Shown piece after piece: positions 56,843 to 64,000 of a stretch of DNA of 64,000 nucleotides. This stretch comes from Halicephalobus mephisto (lineage: Eukaryota > Nematoda > Chromadorea > Rhabditida > Panagrolaimidae), in assembly GCA_009193035.1 (NCBI GenBank), contig SWDT01000152.1, positions 186,001 to 250,000 on the forward strand, in the 5' to 3' direction. The position numbers were made by a program, and so were the translations under genes. Under the pieces are notes generated by a model, which saw only the letters and a list, made by a program, of their open reading frames with translations, was not told where the DNA came from and made no database searches. Every line of letters begins with the position of its first letter. Position 1 is the stretch's first letter.

Positions 56843-57620
56843 CTATATTTTTTGTTTAGTGTAGATGACTCGGGTGTGCTCGAGATAGCCTTGCTTCGGA
56901 TGAGTAGCCGTTCTCATCTCGAGGATTTGCTCCATGTAACTGTCGTCATGTTTTATAAAAGTTCGACGAAGCTAAAGTCGAGATTAACAAGATCCTCGAT
57001 GAAGAAAACTTACATCTTCGACAGGGAGATCCCGAGAGAAGGAAATCCTACCGATATCCTTCAACACCAAGACCATCTTGTTTGGAGTCACCGGACCAAC
57101 CTCATAAGTCGTGAATCCTACAATAAATTTCGTTTTTCATTTAAAAAACAAAAATACCATTGTTGCCAGCAGTCATCAAAGTAGCATTTCCTTTGGAATC
57201 TACAGTAATGAAGCCCCACTCATCGTGAAAGTGATCTTTCGTTGAGTGTGACCATGCTCTAGCGCTGAAGTATTTTTTTAGTGACGATTACATTCTACCG
57301 TATTACCTAAAGTTCATAAATTGAACATTGGACGATTTAGCCATGGGGGCTTCTTGGAAGATGAGCTCTTCGCCGAATGTCATAGTCGGAACCGTCGGCC
57401 AGAAAATTTTACCTCCGAATTCAGAACGCCATTTTCCAATAATCCATTCTAATTTTTTATTATGTTCATTGAGTTCCGCAAGGGAATTGCCAAGAAAATA
57501 AAAAATCGATAGAATCAATAACGAAAAAATCATAGAAGCGGTTTTAGAAAAGGCTTGAGGCGCAATTGAATGACGCCAAACGGGCAAAAGGCGACTGGAT
57601 CTGAACAGCAGTTTGCTCAT
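56843..57620 (-). CDS. Nitrobindin/THAP4-C-like beta-barrel protein
   Basis: Nitrobindins are ten-stranded lipocalin-like barrels that bind ferric heme; the THAP4 C-terminal domain is the human version. The barrel starts LEWIIGKWRSEFGGKIFWPT and MTFGEELIFQEAP. It continues MNFRARAWSHSTKDHFHDEW, GFITVDSKGNATLMTAG, VLKDIGRISFSRDLPVED, then MEQILEMRTATHPKQGY and LEHTRVIYTKQKI with TAG at 56843-56845. The late His (LEHTRV) sits where nitrobindins place the heme ligand. The first ATG gives MSKLLFRSSRLLPVWRHS, a mitochondria-like presequence; a second in-frame ATG gives MIFSLLILSIFYFLGNSLA, a signal peptide. Its start is 222 bp downstream of the RNFT-type gene on the same strand. Four exons. Confidence 0.75.
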
Positions 57621-57842
57621 CCGCCTCCGTCGTCATCGGTTTTTTCGAGTTTTGTATGATTTTGAAAATTTATTTAGCGCAAAATTATTTCCAATAACAT
57701 TCTAACTTTGATAATGTAAATCTGGCAATAAAAATTTTAATTTCCGTGCTATCACAGATGTCAGTTTTCTATCATTTGGTGAATTATACATAAAGTGAAC
57801 CCGTAAACAGAACACCAGAAGTGATGATCCCGTGATCCGGAA

Positions 57843-59249
57843 CTAGAAGACATTAAGGGGGAAATCTTCTTCAAAATCACTGAACTTTAAAGTATTCTGA
57901 GGAAGAACATGAGATCGACAAAGCGGACACGAATTCCCTTTGTTAGTTTCAATCCATGTTGTGATACAGTTCGTGCAGAAGATGTGGGAACATGTCATCT
58001 GAAAATAAAACCAATAGAATATTTGAAGAACACCAAAAAACACCTTTCGTGGAGCATTGTAAGGTTGCTGGCAGATGCTGCAGGTACTTCCTGGCTCAAT
58101 ATCGTCAGGAGACACTGCATCCCCTACCTTGACGCTGAAGGAGATGATTCTGATGAATTTGAACCACAGAATTACACGAGTGATGAAGAAGTATACCTTA
58201 AAGCAATCGATGAACTCCAAATCGCGGAATGCAAAAAACTACCTTGAAGATGACGTAGCTAACGAACATGAACATAGTGGAGAAATAACTAGTCCATTGA
58301 TCCAGAGGGATGAGCATTCGGTAGATGTAACTCGTGTGATCGATGAAGAGATTGACACGTCGTTTCTGAGATTGATTCAGTGGTATAAGGTGGCACTATA
58401 ACGAAGATAATGATTTAGTTTGGGGTTTTTAAACCTGAATCTTACGGTAATTTTCAACAACAAAGCAACATCGGCAACCACAATCTCAGCCAAGATGACT
58501 CTGCATATAGTTATCACGAAACTCGATTCACCGCCGGGCACAAACATCAAAACAACGACACGGAGTATCTCAATCCTTCTAATGATTAGAAAATTGATTG
58601 TATTTCGAATGACGATACACAACACGACTGGGATGAGAGAATGCGAGTTCTCGCCTTTCTGGATCTCGTGAAATTTGTACTGGTCTTGGAAGTACATCAA
58701 GCTGATAAATAAAGAAAGCAGTAATCCCAGATGCTGCATCATTTCTTTAGCAATAGCCAGTATTAGACAGAGTAGGGCCATGACCGCGAAGATAAACTGA
58801 GCAGGAGGACGAGTCTAAAACCCACATTACTCAATTCATGTAGTTTTTTACAACAATTACCGCCAGTTTCCAAGCAAGAGTGTTCAAAGCTTCGGCTTGA
58901 TGTTCTGTATTGGGATTATTAGCATTACCCGACATATTATTTACGCGTTCAACATAAAAATTAATAAACCGATTGGCGAAGTTTCGATAAGGTTGTGTAG
59001 GTGTTCCCTGGGCATCACTTTGGGGCGTCTGAAATTAAGCACAATGGGAAACACTCGATATATGAAATAATTACAAAATTGACATACCTCAGCCGTATGA
59101 TTCACCGTGTCAGAAGCAACATCTCTCATATCGACATATATCGAATCCATTGAATTACCGATTTCTTGGTCACCATTTTCCGTCAATGAATTGTTCGATT
59201 CAGGATTCGAAAGAACCTGCTCGCGTGTAGAGGAACTTGGATCAGTCAT
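57843..59249 (-). CDS. RNFT1: RNFT1/2-type transmembrane RING E3 ligase
   Basis: RNFT proteins are ER multi-pass ubiquitin ligases linked to ER-associated degradation. It starts MTDPSSSTREQVLSNPE and has an acidic, Ser/Asn-rich N terminus. Four or more membrane helices follow (around FAVMALLCLILAIAKEM, LLLSLFISLMYF, SLIPVVLCIVIRNTINFLII and AEIVVADVALLLKITV). The RING finger near the C terminus reads CSICQQPYNAPRKV, then CSHIFCTNCITTWIETN and CPLCRSHVL, all eight zinc ligands being Cys or His. The ending (EDFPLNVF, TAG at 57843-57845) resembles the short post-RING tail of RNFT. Two introns inside the middle part near 57990-58250 are less certain than the RING exons. Confidence 0.75.
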
Positions 59250-59646: not shown

Positions 59647-61199
59647 TTACACGTACTTGGCAAAGAACGACATTTCATCTAAACTTGCGGATCAGTTCAA
59701 AGTTGAAAAAAGGTTCGATTTACCAACAAAACATTCGCAGGATACCCGGACATTGAGATTGAACTTCTGCCACACTTGACATTGGGGAGTCCCAACGTTC
59801 CTCAAGACGACAAAGTTCATGTGCTTCTGTTTGCATTTCCCGTGGGCTAAAGATTGCGGATTTTCGACATTAAAATACTGAGATTCTTACGGTAATCATA
59901 AAAGTACAAACAAGCTTTGTCTTCGTCACACATGACTTCGTTGATGAAAGGAGGAAAGAAGGTATCTGGGAGTTTACGGATTGCCTGACAGGCTCCACAG
60001 AGACGAAGATATCCGTCCTCTTGCTCGCCCCTCTTGTCGCATCCGAAAGGAACAACATGAACATCCCCTGCAAAACCGTTCTAGATCGAATCTAGTTAGT
60101 GTCTGACCAGCTCACCGATCAGTTTCTGCTTCCTCTTGCCTATGAACTCATCCCGTAGTCGGGAACTGTTGAATGACTGCAGCCACTCCGTCGTTCCCGC
60201 ATGTCGTCTCACTCTGATTTCCTCTTCAGTCATCCTTATCGATGGAGACATGATTGTTCTTCTTGGTTCCGTTCTGAAAATTAACTTAAACAAAATCTCA
60301 TAAACACGAACTATACGTAGTGAGATTATGCAGTTTTGACAGAACACTTGGCGATCGGACATTACATTGTAAATTCAGTTCTGCCAGCAGTCTCTCCAGA
60401 GCTTCGACATTTCTTTGGACTGCTTGATGACTGTTCTTCTTGGATTTTGACTGTTTCTCGTACTGATCGACGATGGATCTGTCGAGAAACCGGAAGATTC
60501 CAGTAGCATCCCATGCCATGAGATCCGGGTTGTAAGTTCCCTTCTGCTTGAGTTCGGTCACCAACTCAGCTTGGGTCAATTTTCTGCATTCTTCCAATGA
60601 CCGATTTTGCTAAATAAAAATAGTCAAAAATGATTACATCGATAAGCACCTACAGTAGGATTAAAGGATCTGCCAAAAAACGGCCTATTTCTGATAAAAC
60701 TTGGAGAAATAATCGGAGGTGAAAAAGTCGGATTTTCGGACGTCAAGGACACAGTGGTTTCAGTAGTGGGAGCTACCGACGTCGTGGTCGTCCCAGTAGT
60801 AGTCGTGGTCGTTTCGGTAGTAGTCGTGGTCGTAGTCGTTTCCGGTTCTGAATCCTTAAATAACGAAACAATACGATCGAGAAAAAACGCAGATTGTCTG
60901 TCTGGAAGACTGGATGAAACCGGGATAAATCGCTTTGATTTCAATTTGTCATAATCCTGAATAGCATTATCCACTTTTTCCAGAGTTTCTTTGAGATAAT
61001 TCCTATAATCCCGTAATTCGGCAGCTGAAAGTCGATTATTTATTTCAATAATACAATTATGGAACTCACGTAATGCTTTCGAAATGTCGAAACCAACCCA
61101 ACGTTCCGATTGTGCATCAGCGGACGAGCCGGAGCAACGGGAAAAATAAGAAATAAGAAAGATCCACAAGAACGAGACGCCTGGATGAGGCCGCTTCAT
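59647..61199 (-). CDS. Secreted cystine-knot ligand precursor (noggin/trunk- or IL-17-like)
   Basis: A candidate extracellular signalling ligand or BMP antagonist. The signal peptide is MKRPHPGVSFLWIFLISYF. A pro-region includes WVGFDISKALREFHNCI, a Thr-rich stretch (about 60770-60850, likely O-glycosylated), and helices CRKLTQAELVTELKQKG and AVQRNVEALERLLAELN. A furin-type site RVRR (in EEEIRVRRHAG) and a basic GKRKQK run precede the Cys-rich domain. That domain reads VHVVPFGCDKRGE, LRLCGACQAIRK, FFPPFINEVMC, DEDKACLYFYDYPHGKC, KQKHMNFVVLRN, QCQVWQKFNLNVRVSCEC. The FxPxF...V-C, C...G-C, VLR and final V-C-x-C order resembles noggin/trunk knots; IL-17 (VLR, V-C-x-C end) and spätzle are alternatives. 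Introns of 43-50 nt keep frame. The end is FVDEMSFFAKYV after the last intron, or 59692 if it is retained. Confidence 0.6.
60765..60850. repeat. Imperfect short tandem repeat coding a Thr-rich stretch
   Basis: Repeats of a roughly 6-18-bp unit built on GTCGTGGTC and GTAGTAGTC (plus strand) encode runs of Thr broken by Glu, Gly and Ser within the ligand precursor. The length keeps the reading frame. Confidence 0.65.
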
Positions 61200-61719: not shown

Positions 61720-64000
61720 TTACATTTTTCCATCCTTTTTTTTAGGGACTTCCTTGGCCTCGAGGAACCAGGTACTGCAGGCCCCCTTGCCTTTGATCTC
61801 CACTTTCCCACGTTCGGCAAGGATGAACTGTGGATAGAAGCAATGGAGTAGATTGTAAGACGACTCGCTGATTTGAATCTTGTTAACGACTCCGGTGCTT
61901 TCCATTCTAGAAGCCATGTTCACAGTGTCTCCGAATAAGCAGTATCGCGGAGCAGCCAACCCAACGACCCCTGCGGCAACCGATCCTGAAATTCTTTTTT
62001 TCAAGGTTCAAATAAAATAAAAAACAAACCTGTGTGGAATCCGATTCTGCACATCATAATTTCTTCAGGCTTGTGCGCTAGTTTGAAGTTGGATACAAAC
62101 TAAAACAATATTTTGAAATTGAGGAAAAATTAATTAAACTTTACAGTTCTCATTTTGAGCGCAATGTCAGCAATGTGTTGAACGTGAGCATTTCCATTTT
62201 CCTTCGGGACTCCAGAAACTATCATATATGCATCGCCGATAGTCTCGACTTTGTAAGCATCGTGTTTCGCGATTATAGCGTCGAATCCAGAAAACAAATC
62301 GTTCAAGAAAGTGACGATCTGCAACGGAGTTGAGGTGGAGGATATACGAGTGAAGCCACGGATATCCGAGAACAAAACAGTCGCTCCTTGATAGAGTTGT
62401 GGAATTACGGGTTTTCCTACTTTCAAATCTTCAGCAACAGAAACAGGAAGCATGTTTTTCAACAGACGATCTGCTTGGAGTTGAGCTTCTTCCAGCATCG
62501 CTGTTCTGTCCTTCACCAACGCCTCCAGATTCGTCGTGTAATCTTCCAGCATTTTCAGCATTTGATCGATCAAAGACCCGCTTCCACTGAAATGCCAGAT
62601 ATTTCCTGTCATATCAACGGCCGAAATAAACACTTACGTTGTCTTCAAATTGCCATTGACGAGAGTCTTCATTCTCTTGATGTTTGGACGTACTTCGGGA
62701 AGTTCGAGCCAGCAAGCTTCAATAGCAGACAAAAGTTGCAAATTATAGCTTTCTTCATTTTGTTGACTGGGGAATATCGGTCGGATGATTTGATCGTCAT
62801 CATTGGCCAGAGCAATCATCTCCATAATTTCTAAATCACAATATTAAAAACTATTAGAAAAATAATCAAACGTACTTGTTGGTGAAACATCTCGTTCATA
62901 AAAAGGTTCAACTTTGAAGAGGATCTGATACAAGACCATTCCTAAACTGTAGATATCTGCCGGAGGGGTTCCGGGAGGCAGATACTTGTTCGTGATCAGT
63001 TCTCTGATGATTTCGGGAGCTTGTTGGATGAATTCTAAAAACATTAAATTTAAATAAAATACTAGAAAAATAAGAAAAATTATTACTTTTTAATGTAGTT
63101 TTGTCGATAATCGACTTTTGCTCCAGGATTTCCTGTTCTTCCTCCTCAGAGTCCTCCTCTTCTTCTCTTTCTTTTTCCTTGTTTTTCCCGTTGGCTTTCT
63201 TGGGTTTTAGTGGTTTTTTGACGATCAATTTGAGTTCATTATGACGCATCTTGTCAGCGACAATTTCCTCTGTTACAAAGTTGGTCAACTTCACCGTCCA
63301 GTTGGAATCAACGAGGCAATTCTGGAGACAAAGAAAACCATGACAACGGATGACTGAAGTGTGGATGAAATAAAGACCTTTAACGACGTCTTTGGCAAAG
63401 GAAGCTTGGAAATTTCTGTTTATTTTCAGTTCTTCATTGAAAAGGACGTCTTCCAAGCTCCCGCGTTGACAAAGAAGCCACAAAACAAGAAGTTCGTTTT
63501 GTTGATTGAAGCAGATTCCGTAAAATTTGTTGAGATTTTCGTTTTCAATCAACTTCAACTCCTTCAATCTCATCAGATCGATTTTGGGGAAGGTGATGTT
63601 CCGTGTTTGTTGATATCGTTTGTAGGCCAATCTGACGCCATTGCTGACAGCTTGTTTTGCACTAATTTTGGAATTGGCTTTAGAACCTATGCTTCCGGCG
63701 AAGGATCCAGAACTGACGGATTTCCCAACGGATGGATCAGACTTAGTAGTGCTTTTCTCCAGCAAACGGACGGATTCTCTTCCGACTCTCCATGTCATCC
63801 GGTTCAAGGCGGCATCTTTCCTAAAACGCACAGCAACATTCTATTATTAGTGTCTAACAAGAATAGAACATTGTGCACGTACTCTTTGATGTAGATGAAG
63901 TAACTCGTCGGGATCAAGATCGATAGCAAGAGAATAGCCGCTGCGATCACGAAGAAGATGGTGTAGTCGCAAAGACCTCCGTCGAAGCCGCATTTGGGCA
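61720..64000 (-). CDS. Receptor-type guanylate cyclase, 3' part
   Basis: A transmembrane receptor that makes cGMP, typically in sensory neurons. The extracellular domain and start lie beyond the right edge. At the edge is a transmembrane helix ([18 protein letters not shown]), then the kinase homology domain ([69 protein letters not shown]). An acidic insert [17 protein letters not shown] interrupts this domain before [17 protein letters not shown] and [19 protein letters not shown]. The linker [20 protein letters not shown] and the cyclase domain follow: [15 protein letters not shown] (metal Asp), [17 protein letters not shown] (guanine Glu), [17 protein letters not shown] (guanine Cys). The catalytic residues are intact, so activity is expected. 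It ends [13 protein letters not shown]. Which GCY it corresponds to cannot be told. Confidence 0.9.

What the first reader, a model, noticed from the sequence alone, without database searches (positions are those of the whole stretch)
59647..61199. Furin-cleaved cystine-knot ligand candidate with noggin/trunk-like spacing
A secreted precursor with a Thr-rich pro-region and an RVRR site ends in a nine-cysteine domain. The order FxPxF-x(4)-C, C, G-x-C, VLR, C-x-W, V-x-V-x-C-x-C resembles noggin and trunk, with IL-17 as a rival. I recall no clear noggin or trunk in C. elegans, so a nematode member would be of evolutionary interest as a possible BMP antagonist or torso-type ligand.
Basis: partly seen in the sequence, partly recalled or inferred. 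Interest (0 to 1): 0.75.

Follow-up and report, generated by a model that had tools for sequence, protein, structure and literature searches.

The report
Highly conserved nematode PTTH/trunk-like ligand
This gene encodes a secreted, probably protease-cut signalling protein that is strongly conserved in the roundworms compared, C. elegans included, and is related to the insect hormone PTTH and to noggin, so it gives worms a candidate growth-factor signal that seems not to have been studied.

The parts
59647..61199 (-). whole coding region (6 exons, 442 aa): exons 61199-60654, 60609-60317, 60273-60116, 60067-59891, 59846-59724, 59678-59647
   Evidence: splice reconstruction, all GT-AG; orthologue alignment
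61122..61199 (-). signal-peptide-like N-terminus (residues 1-26, end approximate)
   Evidence: hydrophobic core VSFLWIFLI
60750..60839 (-). Thr-rich linker of the pro-region (residues 121-150)
   Evidence: translation
60472..60588 (-). conserved pro motif around ELVTELKQKGTYNPDLMAWD (residues 190-228), shared with coral-type proteins
   Evidence: profile from 16 nematode pro regions: 47 of 68 coral-type N-parts at E<0.01, 0 of 1360 shuffles; alignment A9
60204..60215 (-). furin-type site RVRR (residues 300-303)
   Evidence: R-x-[KR]-R within 85 residues before the knot in 34 of 35 aligned orthologues
60116..60137 (-). second basic junction KRKQKLI directly before the knot
   Evidence: similar junction in 27 of 35 orthologues by the pattern used
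59731..60041 (-). nine-Cys PTTH/noggin-type cystine-knot domain (Cys342-Cys430; contains intron 59847-59890)
59647..59727 (-). conserved C-terminal tail VDEMSFFAKYV, split by intron 59679-59723
   Evidence: alignment A1

Best explanation
It is a nematode member of the Trunk/PTTH/Noggin superfamily of cystine-knot proteins, closer in kind to PTTH/Trunk than to Noggin. Shown by computation: precursor architecture, strong conservation among nematodes, homology with a coral-type family in both pro and mature parts, profile similarity to PTTH, a predicted cystine-knot growth-factor fold. Inferred: the precursor is secreted and cut by a furin-like protease; the knot dimerises (an odd number of Cys lies outside the six knot Cys); the freed dimer activates a receptor tyrosine kinase, as Trunk and PTTH activate Torso. 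The receptor in nematodes is not identified.
Confidence: 0.72

Rival explanations
1. A noggin-like BMP antagonist: it binds DBL-1-type ligands and blocks them, without activating a receptor.
For: Spacing shared with noggin; Foldseek lists noggin 7ag0 at E 7.4e-3; two of five paralogue knots scanned touch Pfam Noggin at E 0.02; the pro motif resembles noggin's GHYDPGFMATSP segment (4 of 2000 shuffles as high with the 15-row profile). An aphid noggin-like protein inhibits BMP without its clip (PMC9071555, passages).
Against: No Pfam Noggin match for the gene or 9 orthologues; the noggin knot scores far below PTTH with the full profile (12.6 against 24.5 bits); a conserved furin-type site lies between the motif and the knot. 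The noggin motif match was picked by eye first, so its figure is optimistic, and a PDB search with the motif profile did not list noggin.
Confidence: 0.13
2. A Spaetzle-like ligand for the nematode Toll receptor TOL-1.
For: UniProt names many orthologues 'Spaetzle domain-containing protein'; the Spz fragment scored 13.0 bits (E 1.1, filters off), 2 of 500 shuffles as high, with the full profile.
Against: No Pfam Spaetzle match among the window protein and 9 orthologues; no Spz chain is listed at E <= 10; W-x10-C-x-C is absent in the Spz fragment. A survey of ecdysozoans reports Spaetzle homologues only in panarthropods, but its authors warn of stringency, and I did not see that nematode genomes were screened for it (PMC7056985, passages).
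Confidence: 0.08
3. A divergent IL-17-type cytokine signalling through IL-17-type receptors.
Against: IL-17 entries are very numerous in those lists; no IL17 Pfam match; no IL-17 chain at E <= 10 with the family profile. From recall, IL-17s lack one knot disulfide, while six knot Cys are present here, and the known C. elegans IL-17 genes are other loci.
Confidence: 0.07

Closest known systems
PTTH / Trunk (insect Torso ligands)
   Same: Cleaved secreted precursor type, C-terminal cystine knot; PTTH has identical C-x14-P-x7-C and W-x10-C-x-C spacing and is the one significant PDB profile hit. No Trunk sequence was compared.
   Different: Extra cysteines, conserved C-terminal tail, a pro motif shared with coral-type proteins; Torso-type receptor in nematodes not shown
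Noggin
   Same: Same knot spacing; pro motif weakly like a noggin segment before its knot
   Different: No Pfam Noggin match for the gene; probable furin cleavage between motif and knot
Coral 'skeletal organic matrix protein 8' family
   Same: Same pro motif, basic junction and knot; named coral hit (Oculina P0095) at E 1.1e-9 from the nematode profile, unnamed relatives down to 2.2e-10
   Different: Longer insertion before the W position, no nematode tail, several copies per species among the hits
C. elegans F39D8.3 orthologue (name taken from the Aphelenchus record P0063; C. elegans protein P0022)
   Same: Orthologue by similarity, mature domain 97/107 identical to the window
   Different: Pro-region 65/133 identical; no paper in the library holds the name F39D8.3

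Membership tests
Trunk/PTTH | Sequence-profile relation to PTTH | tested here: met
   E 2.4e-4 among PDB sequences, next 1.9; subset controls; fails with orthologue-only profiles
Trunk/PTTH | Cystine-knot growth-factor fold | tested here: met
Trunk/PTTH | Basic cleavage site before the knot | tested here: met
   site present in 34 of 35; cleavage itself not shown
Trunk/PTTH | Activates the Torso receptor tyrosine kinase | not testable with these tools
   needs binding or genetics; no Torso search was run
Noggin | Pfam Noggin above curated cut-off | tested here: not met
   no match for the gene or 9 orthologues; best paralogue 15 bits against 24.1
Noggin | BMP-binding clip segment | not tested
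   not seen by eye; no separate test run
Spaetzle | Spaetzle domain by Pfam profile | tested here: not met
   no match for the gene or 9 orthologues
Spaetzle | Profile relation to solved Spaetzle | tested here: inconclusive
   no Spz chain at E <= 10; fragment E 1.1 with filters off, 2 of 500 shuffles as high
IL-17 | IL17 Pfam profile | tested here: not met
   no match
IL-17 | IL-17 fold nearest in structure search | tested here: inconclusive

The most novel reading that the evidence does not exclude
Nematodes as a phylum keep an almost frozen torso-type ligand, inherited with its cleavable pro-domain from before the cnidarian-bilaterian split, and that pro-domain is the counterpart of noggin's N-terminal part. 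C. elegans would then have an unrecognised trunk/PTTH-receptor-kinase axis, possibly timing growth or moulting, and some nematodes a set of paralogous ligands besides.
Probability: 0.3. Interest if true: 0.85.

Novelty: new member of a known kind. Interest (0 to 1): 0.62.

Why it matters
A trunk orthologue was reported as not retrieved from C. elegans while seen in other nematodes (PMC6660194, Figure 2 legend). Here a C. elegans relative exists, 91% identical over the mature domain to this distant nematode, and it can be tested genetically at once. It would bear on how moulting and growth timing are signalled outside arthropods, on how the noggin/trunk/PTTH group split between BMP inhibition and kinase activation, and on where a coral matrix protein family came from.

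Tried and rejected
Pfam scans of the gene and 9 orthologues gave no cystine-knot family; of ten coral-type proteins scanned, none either. PDB searches with the single sequence, the nematode profile A3 and the full-length profile A4 gave nothing relevant. The first fold, from a nematode-only alignment, was poor (mean pLDDT 54); adding coral-type rows raised it to 76.7. hhalign of an 11-row knot profile against single sequences was only suggestive: Cys-fixed shuffles as high were 1 of 200 for PTTH, 18 of 200 for noggin, 53 of 200 for Spz. The pro-motif profile against the PDB did not list noggin at E <= 10, so that link stays weak; the 15 motif rows matched only SAP and Sap1_N, one row each, at E 0.12 and 0.14. 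An own-genome search with the Pfam Noggin family found nothing, but no control rang, so it is uninformative. Tree of knots: one starred branch (the coral-type rows), PTTH on a very long branch, so not used to place the gene. Spaetzle is not in the 50 listed VIA rows or the 50 listed Foldseek rows, which excludes nothing. The Spz letters tested lack its N-terminal part, so only the W-x10-C-x-C result counts for it. W-x10-C-x-C holds in only 30 of 78 coral-type rows. Rows chosen: A1 35 and A2 36 of the 61 hits; A6 84 rows from three searches; one search listed 120 of 156 hits, 36 unseen. 'Coral-type' rows: the named ones are Oculina, Desmophyllum, Stylophora and Montipora; most are unnamed.

Full report
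Gene. On the minus strand six exons with GT-AG introns of 43-48 bp give a 442-residue protein from 61199 to the stop at 59647. It has a hydrophobic start, a Thr-rich stretch, a conserved pro motif, RVRR at 300-303, a second basic junction, and a domain with nine cysteines (Cys342-430) ending in DEMSFFAKYV.

Relatives. One search found 61 proteins at E <= 0.001; all rows with a named organism are nematodes, among them Trichinella, filarids, Pristionchus, Strongyloides, Meloidogyne and Caenorhabditis. Over the mature domain (108 residues) the window protein is identical to Panagrolaimus P0001 at 107/108 positions, to C. elegans P0022 at 97/107, to Strongyloides P0041 at 90/108, to Trichinella P0049 at 75/108; over the pro-region to C. 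elegans at 65/133. P0022 lies on a contig of 17,718,942 bases, which by recall is the length of C. elegans chromosome X; an Aphelenchus orthologue is named after C. elegans F39D8.3, so the gene name is indirect. No paper in the library holds that name. R-x-[KR]-R within 85 residues before the knot is present in 34 of 35 aligned proteins.

A profile search reached coral-type proteins, some named 'putative skeletal organic matrix protein 8' (Oculina, E 1.1e-9), and a second round with a joint profile listed more. Named species are Oculina, Desmophyllum, Stylophora and Montipora; most rows are unnamed. They share not only the knot but a pro motif, LLxxLKxxGxxNPRYMA against nematode ELVTELKQKGTYNPDLMA: a profile of 16 nematode pro regions hits 47 of 68 coral-type N-terminal parts at E < 0.01 (Z set to 1000), and 0 of 1360 shuffles. 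Two conserved blocks in the same order make common descent of the whole precursor likely.

The window's genome has six further loci on other contigs with diverged knots, E 2e-20 to 7.5e-7. Read out by eye, L003 and L008 show the pro motif clearly and L005-L007 a looser form; their knots carry pieces such as CWTWRQLPPDYFPRLINELVC and YYPRYMNELIC. Of three knots scanned, L004 and L007 touch Pfam Noggin below its cut-off (E 0.02) and L003 does not; L005 and L006 had no match. True silkworm PTTH touches Noggin as weakly (E 0.008).

Family assignment. A profile of window, Trichinella, four coral-type rows and five paralogues, without any arthropod sequence, was run against 177,635 PDB sequences: silkworm PTTH came first at E 2.4e-4 and the next, unrelated, at 1.9. 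Controls: of seven profiles built from all rows or subsets, PTTH had the top score in six, with 0 of 500 Cys-fixed shuffles as high; the exception is the two orthologue rows alone, where all three targets are low and Spz is slightly highest. Noggin also beat all 500 shuffles in four of the seven. With the full profile and filters off the scores are PTTH 24.5, noggin 12.6 (E 1.4) and Spz fragment 13.0 bits (E 1.1). Exact spacings: C-x14-P-x7-C in 51 of 51 and W-x10-C-x-C in 50 of 51 nematode rows; 74 and 30 of 78 coral-type rows; both in PTTH and noggin. The resemblance of the pro motif to noggin's GHYDPGFMATSP was noticed by eye and then tested: 4 of 2000 shuffles as high with the 15-row profile (2, 7 and 21 of 2000 with three subsets), no listing in a PDB search. 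It is a lead.

Cysteines. Ungapped spacing puts six cysteines (P0062 numbering 69, 92, 98, 109, 141, 143) on the knot cysteines of PTTH and noggin (read; knot pairing in PTTH is recalled). Cys55, Cys72 and, in nematodes, Cys127 are extra. An odd number outside the knot fits a disulfide-linked dimer; that is inference.

Mechanism. Most likely a secreted precursor cut at the furin-type site, releasing a dimeric knot that activates a receptor kinase. Trunk is described as furin-cleaved (PMC4640135, title and abstract start seen), and Trunk and PTTH activate receptor kinase signalling (PMC9071555, passages). Whether nematodes have a Torso-like receptor was not tested here.

Literature. De Oliveira et al. 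2019 (PMC6660194; passages and part 1 of 3 of section 5) report trunk in two corals and, in a legend, say it was not retrieved from the C. elegans genome but was identified in other nematode species. So the kind is known and a nematode occurrence was mentioned; whether that was this gene or a paralogue I could not see. The C. elegans relative, its strong conservation, the shared pro-domain and the paralogue set are what this adds, as far as the ten searches of this library show.

Noticed in passing
own genome loci L003-L008 (contigs C289, C295, C93, C55, C17, C245): Six diverged paralogues with the same knot; those of L005 and L006 follow Gln/Gly/Pro-rich stretches, and L004 and L007 touch the Pfam Noggin profile.
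   Followed up: partly
window 57843-58238, minus strand: RING-finger protein gene next door (Pfam zf-RING_2, E 9e-11).
   Followed up: partly
window 57303-57632, minus strand: Exon of a THAP4-like heme-binding beta-barrel protein, just over the Pfam cut-off (25.4 against 25 bits).
   Followed up: no
window 61720-64000, minus strand: Guanylate cyclase gene running off the window end (Pfam Guanylate_cyc E 2e-27 for one exon); by eye, the ORF at 62908-63840 reads like a kinase-homology region of a receptor cyclase.
   Followed up: partly
coral-type proteins P0093-P0175: The coral 'skeletal organic matrix protein 8' family looks like a multi-copy PTTH/trunk-like ligand family; by eye, S. pistillata P0133 holds a second, partial knot in one protein.
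   Followed up: partly
UniProt names of orthologues: 'Spaetzle domain-containing protein' is assigned to many orthologues, but no Pfam Spaetzle match was found in the ten proteins scanned here.
   Followed up: yes
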